Under the pieces are notes generated by a model. The model had not been told where the DNA came from and did not search any database. It saw nothing but the letters and a program-made list of their open reading frames with translations. This document shows, in pieces, positions 15,847-27,344 of a stretch of DNA of 44,255 nucleotides. This stretch comes from a virus. The stretch spans positions 1-44,255 of IMG/VR virus record IMGVR_UViG_3300009091_000023; one strand, written 5' to 3'. Numbering within the stretch: position 1 is the first letter of the stretch; each line of letters begins with the position of its first letter. The position numbers and the translations under genes were made by a program.

Positions 15847-18800
15847 CTACTTGTTGAACAGCCTATCCAGGTAGGCATCGAATCCTGGCCCGCTCGCAGG
15901 GGCCTGCCCCGCAGGGTTCGCATCCACATCCGCCCACCTGTCCGCCCATTGCATGTCATCCATAATGCGTTCGATAGTAGCGTTGATCGGGTACAGGGCA
16001 CTGGGCACATCTGCGGGCGTCTGCACCTTGATGCCGAGCGGCGCTGCCTGGCGCAGCATGAAGGCTGTCAACCTGTCACCCCAGTCCCTGCCGTCGGGCG
16101 TGTAGCCGAGGCGCTGGGCCGTTGCAGGATTCGTCGGTGCCAGCGGCTCCATCCAGTTGCCGAGCAGCGGGTTGACGAAGGGGAAGGCGACGGAGAATGC
16201 AGAGGCCAGGCGGGAGTCCACCCTGTAGTCCCCCGTGTTCTCGTTCTTGACGAAGTTGATGCCAGGTATCCTGTCCATCATGGCCACCATCTGCAGCAGG
16301 CCCACCGAGGTCGCCTGCTTGTAGGGGTCGTCCGACTTGCTGATGAAGTCGAAAGGCAACTCCACCTGCGGGCCGAGCATGTTTCCCAGCCAGGCATACA
16401 GGCCGTCCATCGACAGACCCTGATCGTACACCTGCTCAAAGTCGAACAGGTCGTTGATCGGCATGTCGGGGTCAAAGAAGATGCGCGCCCAGAAGGGGGT
16501 GCCTTCGTTCATCACGATGCCCGTGCCCACCGCATACCTGCCCCAGTAGGGGGCGAGCGGGTAGGCGTTGTAGTAGTCGCCGCCGCCGAACTCCTGCTGC
16601 ATGTTGTACTGCAGCTTCCAGTAGCGGTAGATCAACTCGGGGCGCTCCATCACGGCCCTGATCTGAAACTCCAGGTTCCGCTTGCCCCACACGAAGAACG
16701 GCACCAGGTGGTCCTTCATCCACACTTCCGCATTCGTCAGGTCCGAGTAGTCGAAGTGGGCCACCTTCGCCATCGACGCAGCCCGACGTTCACTGAACGG
16801 GGTGCCCGCCTCGAAGTAGCGGAGGAAGGCAGCGAAGCGCATCCAGTCTTCCGACGTGCGCATCAGCTTGGTCCCCACCCTGATCGCCGCATGCTCCTTA
16901 CGATTGAACGGGTTCAGTGCCCTGGCGAATCCACGCCAGGTCTTCAGGGAGGGCAGGTTGCTCATCGCCCGAGCGAACTCGGTGCTGGCAAAGGTGTCGA
17001 ACACACCCTCCTTGTAGGCCATCTGCAAGGCCAGGCTGTCCCTGGCGGGCAGCTTGGCCAGCGCCGCCTCCAACGCGTGCGGGTCGCCCTTGATGTCGGT
17101 GGTGATACCCCACCAGGTGCGCAGCAGGTTGGCCGAACGGGCATAGTCGTAGGCGCGTACACCGATGAACATGCCGTTCCAGGTGCCGCCCATGATGTTG
17201 CGGGGAATGAACCTGGTGAAGTTGCCCACCGTCACCCATGTCTTCCACCACTGGTAGAACTTCTGGTAGCCCTTCGCCAACTCCCGCATCCCCTGCATCT
17301 TCCACATGTTCTGGGTAACCTTCGCGTAGTTGTCAAAGAACTGGAGAACTTCGGGGCGGACCACCATACCCTGCAGGGGGCCAGTGCCCAGGGCGTGCAG
17401 GCCAGGGTCCATGAACCCTGGCACGTTCTGTACGGTTCCCACATGGCCCTTCAACTTCAGCCTCTCCATGATCTGCCTGTACTGGGCTTCCGTGATGCCA
17501 TGCGCATCGAGCAGCTTCTTCGCATCCGCACGGACAGCGTTCAACTGGGTGCCGAACGCCTTGGTCACATCGTTGAAGGTGGCCTTGTTCAGTTCCAGGG
17601 CGCCCGTGGAGTCGGACTCCACCGCCCACTCCTTCAGCAGGCCGTGCATCGACTGCAGCAGTTGATCGGCAGCGATCACCGCCTCCGACTGGTTGGTTTC
17701 CAGCAGAACCTCCGCATCCTTGATCGCCTTGCCCAGACCCGTCACCGCATCCGTCAACGACAGGCTGGCGGAAGCGTTCTGCTGACTGATGAAGGCCCTG
17801 CGGATTTCGTCCATGGGGATGTAGTCCCCGCCGTGGGCGTCGATCAGGGCGCGCATCTCGCCTGCCACCCGATGGAACTCGGCTTGCTGAATCAGCCGTC
17901 GCCAGTCCCTCTCGGGCAGCCACCGTTTCGCCGCCTTCAGGTCCGCCGTTTCCTTCCCGTTCTGGTAGAGAGCGTCCCACAGGCCACGGGATTCGGGGTC
18001 GGCCACTGTCTGGTCCACTGCCAGGCGCAGCCTGCCCCACACTTCGCGCATCTTGTCGGCCTTGACCCCCTGGGCGGTGCGTACCAGCTTGAGGGGTCGG
18101 CCTGTGATGCCCGCCGCAGCAAGCTGCTTGTCGGTGGCACCCTCCACCACCTCAGCTACCGCTTCCAGCGGGGCGACATGCTTGCTCATGCTATCGTCCA
18201 GGTCGATGATGGTTTGAATCTTGCCGCGCACAATCGGGTCTTGCAGTAGCACTTCCTCGATGGTGCGGGGTACCCGCCTAGTACCCACTTCGGGCAGCCT
18301 ATCCGCCCCTCCGCGCAGGGCGGTGGCCAGCCCGTTCACAAACCTGCGAAGCTGCTTGTCGGCCAGGGTGACGGGCAGCCAGTCGAGGGTGGCCTCTTTC
18401 ACCATCACCTTATCGAAAGAGGGGATAAGCTGATGTTCGGGCATGAGGACAATCACGGAGAACTCACCCAAGGCCCGCTCCTTCATCTCCCCCCAGGTGA
18501 AGGAGCGCATCTTCGCCTCCATCCGCTTGTCCAGTACGCCTTGCAGCTTGACCAGTGCATTCCATTCCGACTCTAGGCCCGCCGCCACTACCCTGTCCCC
18601 GCCCGTCGGGTCCAGCCCCACCATCTTGTCGTAGATGTCTTCCAACTCCCGCTGGATGGCTCGCGCCTCGGGGTCGGCATCCAGCAGTTCGTCAATGGTC
18701 GGGCGAGCAGAGATGATGTCATTCCAGTACACGATGCTATCGTAACCTTCGGCAATCAGGTTGTCGCGGAAGGATTCGGCCACGGCCTGGCGAGCATCCT

Positions 18801-21800
18801 GTTCCATCATGTGGTCGAGGGAACCCACGATCGCATAGGCCCGCTCTTCGGGCACCTTGAAGGTGTCGATCAGGATGTCGATGATGCCCAGGTCTGGGTT
18901 CGCCTGCAGGGTGGCAGTGATCTCTTCGATGTTGTCGAAGAAGGGGCGCATCTCGGTGAAGGCTTCCCTGTAAACCCCATCCACCCGACGGCCCAGCGCC
19001 TCCGCTATGGCCCGCTCATCACCGCCGCCATGGGCGATCTCCATGCACCTTCTGATAGCAGCCCCGAACAGGTTGGCCCCCTCGGGGTCGGCCACACCCT
19101 GGGCGGCCCGCTGCCATCTGGCACTGTTGGCACGCATGTTGTGAGAGATGGCGTCGTCCTGCAGTTCGGCGTCGGCCCGCCCGAAGCGGAACGGGCGGTG
19201 GGCCGATATGCCCTGCAACTCCTGCTGGGCGATAGCCTCCACCTGCTCCTTGGGCGGACGATAGGCGTCCAGAGGTTTGCCAGGCAGCAGCCTACCCGCA
19301 GTGCGCCTGTCCCCACGGTATGCCTTGAACCGCTTGGCGACAACCTCGAAGTCGAGAACACCCAGGCCTTCATCGGCCCAACCGCGAACCCACAGGTCCG
19401 CCCCCTTCCTGGTTTCCGCCAGGTGGACGCCCATGTAGGAGTTCATGTTGTGGGTCACCCGTGCCGCTGGCGGCTTCGACCAGTCGGGCACTATCTTGTC
19501 GGCGGTCGCATGCGACCATGGATGGTTGCCCAGAGACTGGGGGGTTCTGTTGAGGGCACGGCCCTCATCCACCAGGGTCTGAAGGTACTCCTTGCCCCTA
19601 CGGGCCAGCGCCTTGTTCCAGCCGTAGGACGGCATCACCGCCCAACCCCAGGTGCCGTCCGCGTTGCGGACAGGCTGGATGATCTTGCCAGCCATCCCCT
19701 CCATGTACGAAGAGGCCAGAGCGAAGTGCGCCTCTGCCGTGGTCGGCCAGGCGCTCTCATCCCACAGCTTCTCCAGGGTGGCATCGGGGATGCGGAACCC
19801 GCCGTCCACGATCTTGATGCGGGGCGTAGCGAACTCCCATCCGATCTTGTTCCCCAGATTGCCGCCCACCTTCTGGACCCCCTGGTCAAGCTGGCCGATG
19901 TCCATGGTGGTGCGAAGTTCGGCGGACACGTCGAACAGCAGATCGCGCATCTGCATGATCGTGTCACCCGCCACACGGCGGTGATGGCCGACTGTGGCGA
20001 TCTTCACCATCTCCGCATCGGACGGCAGCAGCTTCTCTGTTACGCCGCCACCAGTCCTGGCTATGGGGCGTGTGAGGTCGGTGACCAGGGCGTCACCCTG
20101 CAAGCCCGAGCCTGCGCCCGAGCGGACCATGTTGTACCAGCCGAGCATGGTGTCGTACTTGACGCCCCAGGCGGTTGCCATCAGGGACAACCTGTTCGGC
20201 CTGGTGGTGGGAACCTCCACCTTGCCCCCGCCCTTCACCGTATGCATAATCGGCTGGCCCTGCTTGTCAAGCAGCGTGTACGTCTTTGGCAGCAGCGGAT
20301 CGTCGTCCAGGTTTCGGAACATGGCCTTCGCCATCCACTCCTGAATCAGCATCTTGTCGGCCTTGATGTGGGGGTCCAGACCGTAGGCGCGGGCCACCCG
20401 CAGCACGTCGGGGTCATCCCAGGGGCGGCCCTTGAACCTGGCGGTCATGATGCGCTGCGCCTCCTTGCGCCTACCCGCCTTCTCCAGCCTTGCCCCCGCC
20501 TTGGATACCACATCCCTGGGCCTACCCTGGGCACCCTCTGCGGGTCGGGCTTCCTCCAGGTTCTCGGCACCACGGCGCAGCCGCTCGCGCATGGTGGCGA
20601 ACTCTTCGCCTGGCAGCGCCCCAGGCTGCTCCGACAGTCGGCCCGTAGGGATATGCCCCTCTTCGGTGAGGCCCGAGTCGATGAAGGTGTCCATCTGCCT
20701 GAACAGCGTGTCGTCCAGTTCTGGCCCCGCCATGTCGTCCAGCCAGCCCCAGGCGCGCATGTCTTCCAGGGAGGCAAGGGTGGCCTTGCCTATGCGCACC
20801 GCCTTGGTGGCCGCCTCGATGAGGGGTGGGAAGTCGAAGAACTCATGGTCCCCGATGGCGAGAAGGTCGGCCCGCTGCATCAGGTCGCGGAACAGGTCGT
20901 TCGCCTTCACCGCCACCTGGGCTGCAGTCAGCTTGTAGTCTACCCCGCGCCACTTTCCGCTCCATGCCTTGTAGCCCCCACCGTCCTCCACCATGACCAT
21001 CAGGTCGCGGGCTGCTTCGAAGTTCTGTGACACGCGAATGCGACGGGCGAAGTCCAGGTAGACGACCATTGCCATCTTCATGTCGGCCCGCGCTTCGGCC
21101 AGGTCGAGCATGTCCTGCTTGGCGTGCAGGTAGGAGAGCCGCTGGGCGTGGATGTCCTCTTCCTGGGCGACGATCTCCAGGTTATCCCGCTCGGCCAGCA
21201 GCTTGCTTCGCTCTGTGTCCACTGCCGCCGAAAGGCGCCTGATCTCCTGGTCCAGGCGGGCGATTTCGGCCTCGTTGGAGGGCAGGGTCGTCGGACCCCA
21301 GCCGCCCACCTCGTAGGGTTTGCCCGCAGGCTGCTGGCCAGGTTGCCCAACCAACTTGTCCCTCACCTGCCCCTTCGACCAGGCCCGACGGGTGCCCTCG
21401 GGCTGACCGCCGATAACCTCGGCGGCGTGGGGCTGGATGCCCCGCCTCTCGTATCTCAGGTCTTCCAGAAGATGCTGCTGGCCCTCATCCAGGGCGGCCA
21501 GTGATTCGTCAATCTCCCTGATACGGGTGCGGGTTGTTTCCGAACGGGTGGTGACACGGCCCTGCTGCTGCAGCCGTTCGATCTGGCTGATCTCATCGGC
21601 AACCTCTTTCCGCATCTGGTTGAAACGCTGGGTGATCTTCGGCATGATGTACTGACCGACCATCTGCTGCATCTGCTGCTGGGTGAGTCGCTGCGAGTTG
21701 AGGGCTGGGTCGAGATGTTCGCTGGCTTCCAGCAGCGGGGACGGCTGACGGGGTTGCACCCGTTCGACTGTGCGACGGGTGGTCTGCAACTTCTCCACCC

Positions 21801-24800
21801 CGACCTTGCCTTCCGACTCGGCCTGGCGGATGATCTTGAACATCTGCTCCTGGGCGTCGCTGAGGGCCTGGTTCACTGTGCGCCGTGCCAGGCTGTTGAT
21901 GGAGGCCGCCTTCGTCGCCGTCCTGCGGGCAGGCTTGCCCGTAGTCTCCCAGACCGCCCTGAACTCGGGTCCGAGCAGGCCGACAGCGCGGTCGGTCATG
22001 ACCGCGAACTCGTCGGACAGGCGGGCACCAGCCTGCAAGATGGCCTCACAGAAGTCGCTCATCGCATCCGACGGGAAGGCGGCGATCGTTTCCGCCACCT
22101 CACGCGGCAGACCCGTCTGGTCCATGATCTCCTGCACCACCTGACCCACAGGTATGCCTGTGGCGGGGTGGGTTCCCTTCACATAGGAGGCGTACTCCTT
22201 GGTCACCCTGTCATAGGCCTCCTGCACTGGCTGCTGGTTCCAAATCTGGTCCCACAGTTCAAGCTCGGTGGTTCCTAGCGGCCTCTTCACCATCTTGCGA
22301 ACACCGTACCTGGACTTGCCGCCTGTGGCGACGAACTCGGCAAGCTCCTTGCGCAGCGGCGACGTGTCCCACCAGGAGCCGATGATCGCGTTCACCGCAT
22401 CCTGAATGCGGACGGCCTTGCCCTGGCTCATCTTGCGGGCCATCACGTAGTTGATTCTCTTGAACTGGTCGACTATCGCCCACTCTTCCACCGCATGACC
22501 CACCTGGCTGATGTATCCCTGCACCAGGGCAGACGCATTGTCTTCGAACACCTTCGGCACTGCCAGGCCGTTTGGCCCTGGGATGCTGTCCACTGCGGCC
22601 CGACGGGGCACCAGCACCTTGGGGTTCTCGCCCAGCACTGTCTGCAGTGCTTCCCCCACCACCTTGTTGAGTTCGGTGGTCGGGGCGAAGAATGACTCAG
22701 CGAACTTGTGGTCTTTCAGAATGGCGGGTATCAGGTACTGCCCTGGGTTGGACGACAGATCATCCAGCGGCAGCATCTCCACCACCACCCTACCGATGGT
22801 GCGCTTCTCCATCGACGGGGCGTGGCCCAGTTTGCTGACCGCCATCTTCTGGCGGACGCTGGCCACGATGTCTGACAGAATCTGGAACCCTGCCCCGCGG
22901 GTCGGGTCGATGTCGATGCCACTGTCGGCAAGGGCTTCCGTCACCTGCTTGCCCCACTCCGTTTCCCTGGACGGGAGGTAATCATCCAGCTTGCCCAGGG
23001 TGCTGTTGTAGTCGCGGGCCTTCTGCCAGAGCCGCTGCATCGAGTCTTCCATCTTGCCCGCATACTCGATGGCCAACTTATGCACCCTGTCGTTGCCGCC
23101 AATCAGCTTGCTGCCCGAAGTCCAGGCCGACTTGTCGCGGGCCTGCATGAAGTCGGTGATCTCCCGCATCACCACGTTGTAGTCCAGCCCCTCTTCCGAG
23201 ACAACGTGGTTCATGACTGCCCCGTAGCGTTCCACGCTGTCGACGGCACGGCGGACCAGTATTCCGATTGCCGACTTGGCGTCCTGTTCCGCCGACCACA
23301 TCATGATGTTGCCCTTGCGAGCCAGGCTGATGATGAAGTGGTCGCGGCCAAACTTGCTGGCCAGGTCGTCCAGTTTCTCGGCAGCACGGGCGAGGATTGG
23401 GAGGTTATCCTTCGCTGTCGACCACACCCTGCCCAGGGTGTGCGCCTTCAGCCAGGAGCCTACCCCCGTTGTGTGGGGTAGCACCCAGCCGCCATTGCCC
23501 GTGATGGTGCCAATGCGGATACCGCCAGCGGCCCACTTGGGTAGCCCGCCCTCAGCGACAGGGAGGTCGACCAGTTGCAGGAAGTCCTGGTCCACCTCGA
23601 AGAACCTGCGGGAGACAATCGGCCTCACCGTATGTTCGAACAGGTCGGACTTCACGGTGCCGACCGCACGGTCCACGATGTTCTGGGGACCGTGGGCGGC
23701 GTTGAACTCGGTGATCGCCTTCTCCATCCGAGCGTATAGGGCCTTGGTCTGCCCAGCAGTGTAGCCGCCTGCGGCGGCACCCTTCCGCCCCAGGGGCACA
23801 CTCGCCTGGATGCCATCCAAGATGTCCATCAGTTCCGCATTGTCGAGGGCGCGCACCGTGTCGATCTGATCGTCCACTTGGCGAAGGACACGCCGCACCC
23901 ACGGGAATCGCATGAACTCCATGGTGGCGCGGCCCACCGTCATCTTCTCTGCTGCATCCACCACGCCAATCCAACCGCGGCGGCCAGCCGATTCGATGAC
24001 GGCCTCGCGGAGGGCCGAGTCGACTACCGACCCGACGCCTATCGCCCTGGATGTGGAACCTACCAGGCTGGCCCCCAATCCGACATAGGAGAAGGGGTCG
24101 GCGGCAACGTCGCCCGCGAAGGCGGAAAGCCCTCGCACTGCTTTGCCCAGAGCGATGGGGATGTTGAGGGCGGCATTATCGGTGAACTCCAGTTCGGGTA
24201 CCCCAGCATTACGGAAGAAGTCGGTGCTGGTGAACATGCCTTCCTCACCGAACATGCTGTCGGGGCCACCCCTGAGTTGCTCATACTGACCCTGGGCAGT
24301 GTGCAGCATCTCATCGAGACTGACCAGCGGCATGTAGTCGAATCCGAGGCGACTGGCCCGCTCTTCCCCGAGCAGGTTCACGATGATGTTGCTGGCCCCT
24401 GCCCCCAAGTTCCAGGCCAGTTCCAGCACCGTCTGCATCGGCCTGGAGAACGGCTCCAACTTGAGCAGCACCCGCTTCCACCAGGGCAGGGACACTTCGG
24501 GGTGCAGAATCTGGCGCTGGTTGTTCGCCAGTTCATTGCCATACGCCTGCAACCTTTCGCGGTCCTCGTCGGATAGGCCAGGCTGGGCCAGCATCTCCTG
24601 CAGGGCGGCCATGGTGCGGTTCATGGCGGCGACGGCCTCACTGTCCGTCATGGGGTCTTGGCTGCCAGGGTAGGTGGTGACGGGCTTGGGGGCAGGCATC
24701 ACCATCTCGGCGTAGGCGCCAGGCTCACGGGCGTAGAAACGGTCGAGGAAGGACGGCAGGTTGCTGCCCCCGCCGAGAGAGGCGGTTAGCTGTTTAGCAT

Positions 24801-24870
24801 AGGTCAGATTGCGGTTGGCTTCGTAGCCGCTGTTCGCGTATATCTGGTCGAGGATGTCCGTGTAGGACAT
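15847..24870 (-). CDS. Giant polyvalent virion (ejection) protein, 3007 aa
   Basis: The largest gene of the window, coupled to the M23 gene by TAATG. It is mostly helical with few obvious domains. Near the N-terminus is a hydrophobic patch (about 147-168). Coiled coils lie at about 1060-1135 and 1200-1250. Residues about 1809-2150 contain SYMGVHLAET, EGYDSIVYWNDI (from 2042) and FSVIVLMPEHQLIPSF (about 2135), resembling the ADP-ribosyltransferase-like domain of phage polyvalent proteins. At about 2706-2730 FDYSDLT and VPFFVWGKRNLEFQI match a C-terminal signature of giant phage virion proteins. After the 336- and 824-residue genes, it is placed like the last internal-core protein of T7-type phages, so ejection into the cell is inferred. 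N4-type polymerase motifs were looked for and not found. Confidence 0.75.
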   Translation of the reverse strand: MSYTDILDQIYANSGYEANRNLTYAKQLTASLGGGSNLPSFLDRFYAREPGAYAEMVMPAPKPVTTYPGSQDPMTDSEAVAAMNRTMAALQEMLAQPGLSDEDRERLQAYGNELANNQRQILHPEVSLPWWKRVLLKLEPFSRPMQTVLELAWNLGAGASNIIVNLLGEERASRLGFDYMPLVSLDEMLHTAQGQYEQLRGGPDSMFGEEGMFTSTDFFRNAGVPELEFTDNAALNIPIALGKAVRGLSAFAGDVAADPFSYVGLGASLVGSTSRAIGVGSVVDSALREAVIESAGRRGWIGVVDAAEKMTVGRATMEFMRFPWVRRVLRQVDDQIDTVRALDNAELMDILDGIQASVPLGRKGAAAGGYTAGQTKALYARMEKAITEFNAAHGPQNIVDRAVGTVKSDLFEHTVRPIVSRRFFEVDQDFLQLVDLPVAEGGLPKWAAGGIRIGTITGNGGWVLPHTTGVGSWLKAHTLGRVWSTAKDNLPILARAAEKLDDLASKFGRDHFIISLARKGNIMMWSAEQDAKSAIGILVRRAVDSVERYGAVMNHVVSEEGLDYNVVMREITDFMQARDKSAWTSGSKLIGGNDRVHKLAIEYAGKMEDSMQRLWQKARDYNSTLGKLDDYLPSRETEWGKQVTEALADSGIDIDPTRGAGFQILSDIVASVRQKMAVSKLGHAPSMEKRTIGRVVVEMLPLDDLSSNPGQYLIPAILKDHKFAESFFAPTTELNKVVGEALQTVLGENPKVLVPRRAAVDSIPGPNGLAVPKVFEDNASALVQGYISQVGHAVEEWAIVDQFKRINYVMARKMSQGKAVRIQDAVNAIIGSWWDTSPLRKELAEFVATGGKSRYGVRKMVKRPLGTTELELWDQIWNQQPVQEAYDRVTKEYASYVKGTHPATGIPVGQVVQEIMDQTGLPREVAETIAAFPSDAMSDFCEAILQAGARLSDEFAVMTDRAVGLLGPEFRAVWETTGKPARRTATKAASINSLARRTVNQALSDAQEQMFKIIRQAESEGKVGVEKLQTTRRTVERVQPRQPSPLLEASEHLDPALNSQRLTQQQMQQMVGQYIMPKITQRFNQMRKEVADEISQIERLQQQGRVTTRSETTRTRIREIDESLAALDEGQQHLLEDLRYERRGIQPHAAEVIGGQPEGTRRAWSKGQVRDKLVGQPGQQPAGKPYEVGGWGPTTLPSNEAEIARLDQEIRRLSAAVDTERSKLLAERDNLEIVAQEEDIHAQRLSYLHAKQDMLDLAEARADMKMAMVVYLDFARRIRVSQNFEAARDLMVMVEDGGGYKAWSGKWRGVDYKLTAAQVAVKANDLFRDLMQRADLLAIGDHEFFDFPPLIEAATKAVRIGKATLASLEDMRAWGWLDDMAGPELDDTLFRQMDTFIDSGLTEEGHIPTGRLSEQPGALPGEEFATMRERLRRGAENLEEARPAEGAQGRPRDVVSKAGARLEKAGRRKEAQRIMTARFKGRPWDDPDVLRVARAYGLDPHIKADKMLIQEWMAKAMFRNLDDDPLLPKTYTLLDKQGQPIMHTVKGGGKVEVPTTRPNRLSLMATAWGVKYDTMLGWYNMVRSGAGSGLQGDALVTDLTRPIARTGGGVTEKLLPSDAEMVKIATVGHHRRVAGDTIMQMRDLLFDVSAELRTTMDIGQLDQGVQKVGGNLGNKIGWEFATPRIKIVDGGFRIPDATLEKLWDESAWPTTAEAHFALASSYMEGMAGKIIQPVRNADGTWGWAVMPSYGWNKALARRGKEYLQTLVDEGRALNRTPQSLGNHPWSHATADKIVPDWSKPPAARVTHNMNSYMGVHLAETRKGADLWVRGWADEGLGVLDFEVVAKRFKAYRGDRRTAGRLLPGKPLDAYRPPKEQVEAIAQQELQGISAHRPFRFGRADAELQDDAISHNMRANSARWQRAAQGVADPEGANLFGAAIRRCMEIAHGGGDERAIAEALGRRVDGVYREAFTEMRPFFDNIEEITATLQANPDLGIIDILIDTFKVPEERAYAIVGSLDHMMEQDARQAVAESFRDNLIAEGYDSIVYWNDIISARPTIDELLDADPEARAIQRELEDIYDKMVGLDPTGGDRVVAAGLESEWNALVKLQGVLDKRMEAKMRSFTWGEMKERALGEFSVIVLMPEHQLIPSFDKVMVKEATLDWLPVTLADKQLRRFVNGLATALRGGADRLPEVGTRRVPRTIEEVLLQDPIVRGKIQTIIDLDDSMSKHVAPLEAVAEVVEGATDKQLAAAGITGRPLKLVRTAQGVKADKMREVWGRLRLAVDQTVADPESRGLWDALYQNGKETADLKAAKRWLPERDWRRLIQQAEFHRVAGEMRALIDAHGGDYIPMDEIRRAFISQQNASASLSLTDAVTGLGKAIKDAEVLLETNQSEAVIAADQLLQSMHGLLKEWAVESDSTGALELNKATFNDVTKAFGTQLNAVRADAKKLLDAHGITEAQYRQIMERLKLKGHVGTVQNVPGFMDPGLHALGTGPLQGMVVRPEVLQFFDNYAKVTQNMWKMQGMRELAKGYQKFYQWWKTWVTVGNFTRFIPRNIMGGTWNGMFIGVRAYDYARSANLLRTWWGITTDIKGDPHALEAALAKLPARDSLALQMAYKEGVFDTFASTEFARAMSNLPSLKTWRGFARALNPFNRKEHAAIRVGTKLMRTSEDWMRFAAFLRYFEAGTPFSERRAASMAKVAHFDYSDLTNAEVWMKDHLVPFFVWGKRNLEFQIRAVMERPELIYRYWKLQYNMQQEFGGGDYYNAYPLAPYWGRYAVGTGIVMNEGTPFWARIFFDPDMPINDLFDFEQVYDQGLSMDGLYAWLGNMLGPQVELPFDFISKSDDPYKQATSVGLLQMVAMMDRIPGINFVKNENTGDYRVDSRLASAFSVAFPFVNPLLGNWMEPLAPTNPATAQRLGYTPDGRDWGDRLTAFMLRQAAPLGIKVQTPADVPSALYPINATIERIMDDMQWADRWADVDANPAGQAPASGPGFDAYLDRLFNK

Positions 24871-27344
24871 TACCCACCGCCAAGACCCAGGGCTGCCGCC
24901 AGGAAGGGAACTGGGTTGACGTGAAGGGTGCCGCCAACAGTGGTGACGGTGAGGTGCAGGTGGTAGGCTCCGTGCTGCGGGTTGCCCGTGTCGCCCACCT
25001 GGCCGATACGCATGCCCGCGCCCACCTGATCACCAATGTGGACGGGCGGGGCCACCATCATGTGCATGTACTCGTAACGGCGTCCGTCAAGGCCCATGAT
25101 CTCCACGATGTGGCCACCCTTGTCCTCTTCATACCGCACGTCGATGACCTCGCCAGCCACCATGGCCAGGATGGGAGTGCCCTGTGAGGCGTTGATGTCG
25201 ATACCCTGATGGATGTTGCCGTTGCCACGGTCCTCATGGAAGTTGCTGCTGCCATCCCAGGCCACACCTGGCAGCGGGAAGGCCATGTTGCCACCCGTCA
25301 GCATCTCGCGGTCGACTTCCCACTGATGGGAGCCTGTGCCGATCGCATCGAAGGCGGTCTGGTACAAGCGCAGTTCCTGTCGGCTCGGCCTCTCGAACCA
25401 GGAGTCCATGGTACTCTGGGCGTAGGTATGAAGGGCCGCAGTCAACTTCTTCGACTCTTCCAGGTTGAGGCCAGCGTAGATGTACACCCCGTCGGCGTTC
25501 TTCCGCCCGACACCGATGTAGCCCGCATTGTCGATTCCGTTTGCAGTGGCAATGTCTGCGCGGGTACCGCTCCAGGCCTCGGAGGGGTCGGTTATGAAGG
25601 TGTTGGCGATCGTATCTCGCTCCACGATCTGCGCCGCCTGGATGTCGTCCAGTACCCCGATGAACTCCTGGTACGATGTGATACGATTGGGAGTGAAGTT
25701 GGATGTGCCGCTGAAGAACTCGACCACATCCTTGCTGATCTCGGCCCAGTCGATCTCATCGAAGTCGCCGCCCGCCAGGGAGATAGCCTCCTGCAGGCGC
25801 TCGTTCATGTACAGGGTGGCGAAGTCTATCTGCGACAGGTTGAAGCTGTCGTCCGCCGCCCAGGCGGCGTAGGCGGCAGCGGTGGCAGTGTCCACTGCGG
25901 CGGACTGGTCCGCCTGAGTGAGCAGGTAGTCCTGCTGCAACTTCCGAAGCTGCTCCCCCAACTCGAAAGTGATCTGCTCCGCAGTCTCGTTCGCGGTCAG
26001 AATAACCTCGTCACGCTGCGTCTGGTACGCCTGGCGGGCACTCTCCATGCTCGCCTGTACCTGCACGGTGGCCTGGGCGCGGGCGCCCGCCGACTCGGCA
26101 AGCTGCCCCGCCTCCTGGTAGGCGGAAGACTCAAGCAACTTGTACTGCATGACTTCAGCCTCATTCAGATAGGAGGACATCTCCTGCTGTAGGGAGGCCA
26201 GCCGTCCTGCCACCTGGTAGCGAGCCGCCTTGATGGACAGTTCGCCCACCGCTCGCTGCAGGCGCTCCCCCCACACGCCCTCGACTGTGGCCTGCTCGAC
26301 TGCAATCCTGGCGCACTCGTTCAGATCGCCCATCACTTCGGTCTGAAGGTCGGGGTCGGTGTTGCCGATTATCCGTGCTGTCTCGGAGAAGGTGACGGAG
26401 GCAGCCGCGACGGCACTGGCAATACCCTGAATCTCTTCTGTCTGCCCCTGTCGCACTGCAGCGATGGCCGCATCCGTGCCCTGGTAGATGGCGTCCACAA
26501 CAGGGCGCCAGTATTCGGGGATGCGCCGCATCACCTGACCATAGTTCTCTCTGGTGGATGCCATATACTCGTTGATCAGACCCTGCACCTTCGCCCTATA
26601 GTCGTTCCAACCCGACTTGACGGCAGCTTCATACTTGTCGTAGCCCTGGTCAATCAACTGTTGGTACTGCTTGTATGAGGCTTGCGCCGCCTGGGCGTTG
26701 ATGCCGATGATGTTCACCGCCTGGTCGCGCCAGGTCGACCACAGGCCATTCACCCTGCCCAGGGCCTCGTTGGTGCGGTCGATCTCGCTCTGAATCACAT
26801 CCAGCCGAGCCTGGTAGGAACCTGCGGCGATGTTGGCGCCGACCGCCAGGGCGTTGTTCAGCCCGACCAGGGCATCCTGCTGTATCCCGCGGAGATAGGC
26901 GGTGGCGTCGGGGCCACTGACCTCGGGCATCGGGGGCAGTGCGGGCAGTCCAGATGTGGGCCTGTTCGCCTCATGTCCACCACCGCCAGGGCGGGCATGG
27001 GTGGCGCCGTAGTCACCCCAGGGTATGGGGCCACTCGGCGTCGGTGGCTGGTAGCCCTGCGGGATGGACGGCCCTTGCCAGGCGCCCATAACGGGGGCTG
27101 TCTGGGGACCGTTGAGACTCTGTGCCGCCCGTGAAGGGCCGAATATGTAGGAGAGAGCCTGCCCGATCTGCTCCATAGCCTCGGGGGGCATAGGCTGGGC
27201 GGGCGGCAGCCCACCGCCGCTGGCTGCGCTGTAGGGATTGGTGACGGGCTGCGGCCCGCCAGGCTGATAGGTGGCGGGGGCGTGCAACTGCAGCCAGAGG
27301 GCCAGTCCGCTGGTCCGTGGGGTCACGGACCTGGGAACAGCCAT
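24870..27344 (-). CDS. Virion protein with C-terminal M23 endopeptidase domain, 824 aa
   Basis: The first 130 residues are Pro/Gly-rich (PPAQPMPPEAMEQ, GGGGHEANRP). Residues about 150-560 are helical and rich in Ala, Gln and Glu, suiting an internal core or tube-forming protein. The C-terminal 110 residues are a LytM/M23 metallopeptidase: IHQGIDI (His712, Asp716) and YHLHLTV (His795, His797) supply the zinc and catalytic residues. M23 domains cut peptide cross-bridges of peptidoglycan. In a virion protein this would open the wall for genome entry. Both ends overlap their neighbours by one base (TAATG). Confidence 0.8.
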   Translation of the reverse strand: MAVPRSVTPRTSGLALWLQLHAPATYQPGGPQPVTNPYSAASGGGLPPAQPMPPEAMEQIGQALSYIFGPSRAAQSLNGPQTAPVMGAWQGPSIPQGYQPPTPSGPIPWGDYGATHARPGGGGHEANRPTSGLPALPPMPEVSGPDATAYLRGIQQDALVGLNNALAVGANIAAGSYQARLDVIQSEIDRTNEALGRVNGLWSTWRDQAVNIIGINAQAAQASYKQYQQLIDQGYDKYEAAVKSGWNDYRAKVQGLINEYMASTRENYGQVMRRIPEYWRPVVDAIYQGTDAAIAAVRQGQTEEIQGIASAVAAASVTFSETARIIGNTDPDLQTEVMGDLNECARIAVEQATVEGVWGERLQRAVGELSIKAARYQVAGRLASLQQEMSSYLNEAEVMQYKLLESSAYQEAGQLAESAGARAQATVQVQASMESARQAYQTQRDEVILTANETAEQITFELGEQLRKLQQDYLLTQADQSAAVDTATAAAYAAWAADDSFNLSQIDFATLYMNERLQEAISLAGGDFDEIDWAEISKDVVEFFSGTSNFTPNRITSYQEFIGVLDDIQAAQIVERDTIANTFITDPSEAWSGTRADIATANGIDNAGYIGVGRKNADGVYIYAGLNLEESKKLTAALHTYAQSTMDSWFERPSRQELRLYQTAFDAIGTGSHQWEVDREMLTGGNMAFPLPGVAWDGSSNFHEDRGNGNIHQGIDINASQGTPILAMVAGEVIDVRYEEDKGGHIVEIMGLDGRRYEYMHMMVAPPVHIGDQVGAGMRIGQVGDTGNPQHGAYHLHLTVTTVGGTLHVNPVPFLAAALGLGGG

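What the first reader, a model, noticed from the sequence alone, without database searches (positions are those of the whole stretch)
18419..19446. Candidate ADP-ribosyltransferase-like region inside the giant protein
Residues about 1809-2150 show SYMGVHLAE, then EGYDSIVYWND, then FSVIVLMPEHQLIPSF. In phage polyvalent proteins a GYDG-I-V-Y-x-N segment and a following I-V-F-x-P-x-Q-I segment end ADP-ribosyltransferase-like domains. Here about 85 residues separate them, suggesting an inserted loop. An ejected enzyme modifying host proteins at entry would be notable.
Basis: inference. Interest (0 to 1): 0.7.

Follow-up and report, generated by a model that had tools for sequence, protein, structure and literature searches.

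The report
Hidden ADP-ribosyltransferase in giant phage protein
Inside a 3007-residue protein of an uncultured podovirus-like phage sits what is probably a very diverged ADP-ribosyltransferase, an enzyme type that tags proteins using NAD+, in a stretch where related phages carry other enzymes instead, so the giant protein looks like a carrier with exchangeable enzymatic cargo.

Summary
No curated family detects the region (Pfam, PHROGs, NCBIfam, PDB sequences); the evidence comes from relatives. The giant shares a C-terminal core with over 400 viral contigs; I examined 50 such giants (855-3813 aa). Two carry Pfam ART-PolyVal domains. The GYDSIVY block scores 22.6 bits against ART-PolyVal (0 of 5000 shuffles). 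Candidate site: H1787, H1816, D2044, with an 80-residue, probably helical insert before the last strand. The fold is not confirmed: AlphaFold2 is weak (pLDDT 40 alone, 59 with ART relatives aligned) and fold searches returned no ART. In other giants the variable middle holds GNAT-like, Nudix-like, or cpYpsA plus DUF4326 domains. Best reading: a divergent polyvalent-protein ART in a giant, probably virion-borne protein with exchangeable cargo. Packaging, ejection, activity and target are inferred. A new variant of a known kind.

The parts
15847..24870 (-). Giant 3007-aa protein, likely internal virion (ejection) protein, late gene cluster
   Evidence: Intact ORF; directly downstream of the M23-peptidase gene; C-core shared with >400 viral contigs; syntenic 2690-aa giant in L023
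18415..19533 (-). ART-like domain, residues about 1780-2152
   Evidence: Motif order and relatives; not recognised by Pfam, NCBIfam or PHROGs
19501..19518 (-). Motif 1 WSHATA (1785-1790), candidate catalytic H1787; equals WFHGTG of L029; HATA also occurs in the ART-PolyVal member L153
19414..19440 (-). Motif 2 SYMGVHLAE (1811-1819), H1816 at the Tyr position; SYLGIHLAQE in ART-PolyVal member L125, VYLGMHLAQN in L029
18781..19173 (-). Long, mostly helical stretch between motif 2 and motif 3 (about 1900-2030), longer than in ART-PolyVal references
   Evidence: Alignments and low-confidence model; boundaries approximate
18724..18750 (-). Motif 3 EGYDSIVYW (2041-2049), D2044 nearly invariant, candidate acidic active-site residue
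18472..18720 (-). Insert (about 2051-2133), predicted helical hairpin, between motif 3 and the last strand
   Evidence: Helices 2067-2085 and 2093-2123, the best-scoring part of the single-sequence model; spacing comparison
18415..18468 (-). Motif 4 GEFSVIVLMPEHQLIPSF (2135-2152), equivalent of WVAFEPNQIKSA
   Evidence: Aligned in about half of the random subsets and in A7; weak on its own
23956..24144 (-). N-terminal anchor (about 243-305) shared with other giants
16336..17328 (-). C-terminal core (about 2515-2845) with HFDYSDLT and PFFVWGKRN
   Evidence: weakly PHROG 19395 in 9 of 12 members, not in the window copy
24870..27344 (-). 824-aa protein with C-terminal peptidase M23, gene directly upstream of the giant
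   Evidence: Pfam 6e-16; synteny with L023

Best explanation
Residues about 1780-2152 are a strongly diverged ADP-ribosyltransferase domain of the polyvalent-protein (Tox-ART-HYD2-like) type. Strand 1 carries H1787 and strand 2 H1816 in place of the usual tyrosine, the GYDS strand carries D2044, and the last strand GEFSVIVLMPEHQ is separated by an 80-residue helical insert. The domain occupies the variable middle of a giant protein whose N-terminal anchor and C-terminal core are conserved in relatives and which is probably part of the virion. Inferred mechanism: the giant enters the cell with the DNA, the pocket binds NAD+, and ADP-ribose is moved to a host protein early in infection, as T4 Alt does. 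Shown: motif order, homology to L029, conserved candidate residues, variable-middle architecture. Inferred: fold, catalysis, virion location, ejection, target.
For: L029 first block aligns to residues 1785-1819 with score 59 (shuffle mean 31.8, max 51 of 2000; next giant 38) and its second block finds GYDSIVY best, though that one is not significant alone (119 of 2000). The pairwise window+L029 N-block matches the ART-PolyVal profile over 67 columns (E 8e-4; score 24.2 against 19.9 for the best of 100 column shuffles) and the C-block at E 8e-6, both at homologous columns. L029 itself scores above all 300 shuffles as an ordered ART motif chain. Unguided MAFFT aligns motif 1 in 52 of 60 and motifs 2 and 3 in 60 of 60 random subsets. 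L125, a relative of ART-PolyVal, has SYLGIHLAQE. GYDSIVY 22.6 bits, 0 of 5000 shuffles. Related giants L085 and L075 carry ART-PolyVal over Pfam's cut-off. Virion role: late cluster with capsid, portal, tail and M23 genes.
Against: No direct hit to any ART family; whole-domain profile score only 1.3-3 bits. GYDG also occurs in a second, different stretch of L085 (residue 1450), so that motif alone is not diagnostic. Single-sequence AlphaFold2 failed (pLDDT 40); the second model (pLDDT 58.9, pTM 0.52) was given ART sequences, so it is partly circular, and Foldseek gave no ART. Motif 4 is weak. The closest relative L023 shows no ART, so the domain is dispensable to the family. Only one relative (L029) of the same subtype was found.
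Confidence: 0.62

Rival explanations
1. ART-derived but catalytically dead: a degenerate domain kept as a structural spacer or binding module within the giant.
For: HGT is HAT and the strand-2 aromatic is His; very long inserts; divergence beyond all profiles.
Against: The three candidate residues are kept; HAT and His at strand 2 also occur in clear ART-PolyVal relatives (L153; L085, L110, L115, L125).
Confidence: 0.2
2. Not an ART: the motifs are a convergent GYD loop in an unrelated, mostly helical part of a giant structural protein.
For: No fold-level support; motif 4 weak; GYDG seen in another stretch of L085.
Against: Two independent blocks, in the right order, matched through L029; ART-PolyVal recurs in the same protein family.
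Confidence: 0.15
3. Another polyvalent enzyme such as a PBECR-type ribonuclease.
For: PBECR domains are common in polyvalent proteins (PMC5512222).
Against: No Pfam match to any PBECR model; the conserved H-strand, G-x-H-L and GYD order is that of ARTs.
Confidence: 0.03

Closest known systems
ART-PolyVal, Pfam PF18760 (polyvalent-protein ARTs; prototype in the Roseovarius Plymouth podovirus 1 vRNAP)
   Same: Order of motifs H-x-T, G-x-[YH]-[FL], GYD, final x-V-x-x-P-x-Q; placement inside a giant phage protein of the late cluster
   Different: Below detection by the model; His at the strand-2 position, 104-residue gap before the final Q; carrier protein shows no vRNAP domain in Pfam
ART-like domain of L029 (IMGVR_UViG_3300033182_000272)
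   Same: Only relative found of the same subtype: GMHLAQ / GVHLAE, PxxxRxxHxxxxY spacer, long middle stretch; same C-terminal core
   Different: Keeps canonical HGT and has a short connection (23 residues) before the last strand
T4 Alt (virion-packaged ART)
   Same: Mode of action proposed here: packaged ART that acts at entry (PMC9503650, PMC5512222)
   Different: R-S-E clade, stand-alone protein; no sequence relation tested or claimed
N4-like vRNAP giants (Schitoviridae)
   Same: About 3000-3700 aa ejected multidomain protein, sometimes with an ART
   Different: No vRNAP domain found here by Pfam

Membership tests
ART-PolyVal (PF18760) / Tox-ART-HYD2 | Score above the Pfam gathering cut-off | tested here: not met
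   No PF18760 match to the giant or to the region at E up to 1; no candidate in the record. It is therefore not filed as a PF18760 member.
ART-PolyVal (PF18760) / Tox-ART-HYD2 | His in strand 1, Tyr in strand 2, Asp in strand 5 (PMC5512222) | tested here: inconclusive
   H1787 and D2044 align; strand 2 has H1816, also His in 4 of 24 references; strand assignment from alignment and a weak model
ART-PolyVal (PF18760) / Tox-ART-HYD2 | ART fold | tested here: inconclusive
   AlphaFold2 pLDDT 40 and 58.9; fold searches listed no ART
ART-PolyVal (PF18760) / Tox-ART-HYD2 | NAD+-dependent ADP-ribosyl transfer | not testable with these tools
   Needs protein
Polyvalent proteins | Large multidomain protein joining several enzymatic domains, encoded with late virion genes | tested here: inconclusive
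   Late cluster and size met; only one enzymatic domain proposed in this copy, and it is diverged
Polyvalent proteins | Packaged in the virion and delivered at entry | not testable with these tools
   No proteomics
N4-like virion RNA polymerase | vRNAP domain (PF21769) | tested here: not met
   Not found in the giant at E up to 1, while the same library finds it at 1e-46 in RPP1

The most novel reading that the evidence does not exclude
The giants with this C-terminal core are a modular delivery platform of an undescribed, apparently virulent podovirus-like group: conserved ends handle packaging and passage, and the middle is an exchangeable bay mostly for enzymes of the NAD+/ADP-ribose network (ART, Nudix, YpsA-like SLOG with DUF4326), possibly to pre-empt NAD-based host immunity; the window carries an ART subtype not yet in any database.
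Probability: 0.35. Interest if true: 0.7.

Novelty: new variant of a known kind. Interest (0 to 1): 0.45.

Why it matters
Packaged ARTs are known, but curated profiles miss this one, so surveys of phage ARTs undercount. The cargo list of the same protein family, ART, Nudix, cpYpsA plus DUF4326 and GNAT, overlaps the NAD+-ADP-ribose network that PMC9503650 proposes phages deliver against host immunity, and would give a defined set of paired carriers, with and without cargo, in which to test that idea. It remains a computational case.

Tried and rejected
Direct searches with the region: viral contigs, phages at E up to 1, PDB sequences (ribosomal S6 at E 0.04 is low-complexity-like chance), Pfam/PHROGs/NCBIfam: nothing. 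DNA pattern for GYDxIVYWN in viral contigs: no hit. L029 block as query: only itself in viral contigs and one phage match at E 0.5 whose reading frame is full of stops, rejected. L023 as a source of the ART: no similarity between window residues 893 and about 2296. Single-sequence AlphaFold2 failed. Fold searches of the second model returned helical-bundle matches on the insert and no ART; the model is too weak for the absence to mean anything. The genome scan for the C-core (one pattern) found nine non-relatives, so no prophage form was seen at that sensitivity. Considered and rejected: R-S-E or H-Y-E site; vRNAP; PBECR.

Full report
WHERE IT LIES. The window is a 44,255-base virus record, 62% G+C, with replication genes on the plus strand and a late block on the minus strand: terminase, portal, scaffold, major head protein, tubular tail-like proteins, a fibre, and an 824-aa protein ending in a peptidase M23 domain. 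The 3007-aa giant follows that gene directly. Its major head protein is 34% identical to that of MW202803 (Podoviridae sp. ct52p938), which has the same arrangement. Two other metagenome contigs match the packaging genes at 100%, so the phage is not a single-sample artefact.

THE OBSERVATION. All three strings are present at the stated residues. The GYD block is far above chance against a profile built from ART-PolyVal domains (22.6 bits; 0 of 5000 shuffles). Whole-domain profile searches reach only 1.3-3 bits, but rank the window fourth among 50 giants, after L085, L075 and L029. A caution: a GYDG string also occurs in a second, different stretch of L085.

THE RELATIVES. The C-terminal core of the giant, with HFDYSDLT and PFYTWTRKN, led to 403 viral contigs that encode a relative, of which the best 80 were kept. 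Fifty giants including the window were compared, 855-3813 aa. Similarity is confined to an N-terminal anchor near residue 250 and the core; in the closest relative L023 it covers 76-893 and 2297-2981, with the same upstream genes. The middle is variable. There I find ART-PolyVal in L085 (E 7e-21, residues 849-1036) and L075, cpYpsA (E 6e-22) with DUF4326 in L024, and weaker Nudix-like matches in L017 and L019 (E 0.01 and 3e-4; L019 just over the cut-off) and a GNAT-like match below its cut-off in L010. All lie between the anchor and the core.

THE LINK TO ARTs. L029, a 2160-aa giant, carries QMIWFHGTG...HEIDVYLGMHLAQN...AQGHDSILYTIRHDKGTWAVIPLSPAQL. Its motif chain exceeds all 300 shuffles. 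Its first block aligns to the window at WSHATA...SYMGVHLAE with score 59, against at most 51 in 2000 shuffles and 38 in the next giant; its second block has GYDSIVY as its best place but is not significant alone, 119 of 2000. The pairwise alignment of the two N-blocks, made without ART sequences, matches the ART-PolyVal profile at E 8e-4 and the short C-block at 8e-6, both at homologous columns; these are E-values for one comparison. MAFFT given no guidance puts motif 1 in register in 52 of 60 random subsets and motifs 2 and 3 in all 60; the last strand in 30 of 60. L125 and L153, found as relatives of the L085 ART, show SYLGIHLAQE and HATAEE, the variants seen in the window.

ACTIVE SITE AND INSERTS. 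Polyvalent ARTs use His in strand 1, Tyr in strand 2 and Asp in strand 5 (PMC5512222). The window has H1787, H1816 and D2044 at those columns; His at the second place also occurs in 4 of 24 reference domains. Between motif 3 and the last strand there are about 80 extra residues, with two helices in the best-scoring part of the single-sequence model; L153 has a shorter insert there.

STRUCTURE. Alone, the region gives pLDDT 40. With ART relatives aligned it gives pLDDT 58.9 and pTM 0.52, with strands at or next to motifs 1, 2, 3 and 4, but the alignment supplies that information, so this shows compatibility, not proof. Foldseek and VIA-align returned no ART; matches fell on the helical insert. 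The fold question is open.

HOW IT PROBABLY WORKS. Shown: a domain with ART motif order, homologous to L029, in the variable middle of a giant with conserved ends and late-gene context. Inferred: virion packaging, ejection with the DNA, NAD+ binding, and ADP-ribosylation of an unknown host protein. T4 Alt is the working analogy (PMC9503650), not a relative.

WHAT IS KNOWN. Giant multidomain phage proteins with ARTs, GNATs and other enzymes were described as polyvalent proteins (PMC5512222), and ART, Nudix, YpsA-like SLOG and DUF4326 domains as a viral NAD+-ADP-ribose network, often packaged (PMC9503650). This case is a new variant: a subtype below profile detection, on a carrier family I did not find described. 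Interest 0.45.

Noticed in passing
L024 residues 1617-1921: A giant with the same C-terminal core carries DUF4326 and cpYpsA (SLOG) domains, two families tied to ADP-ribose processing.
   Followed up: partly
L017 and L019 residues about 1870; L010 residues about 692-737: Weak Nudix-like and GNAT-like matches in the variable middle of related giants.
   Followed up: no
L085 residues about 1450: A second GYDG string (NGYDGIAWSTGKQQADRWG) in a different, non-ART stretch; shows that GYDG alone is not diagnostic.
   Followed up: no
window:16336-17328: The C-terminal core matches PHROG 19395 (named tail fiber; host specificity) in 9 of 12 relatives but not in the window; the name looks doubtful for this protein. 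A solved 1114-aa 'tail protein', 9k3a, matches the core weakly (E 0.012).
   Followed up: partly
window:15949-18249 and 18811-21030, + strand: Long open frames (766 and 739 aa) antisense to the giant, probably a by-product of high G+C codon use.
   Followed up: no
L002 and L003: Contigs from two other metagenomes match the packaging and head genes at 100%, so this phage recurs.
   Followed up: no
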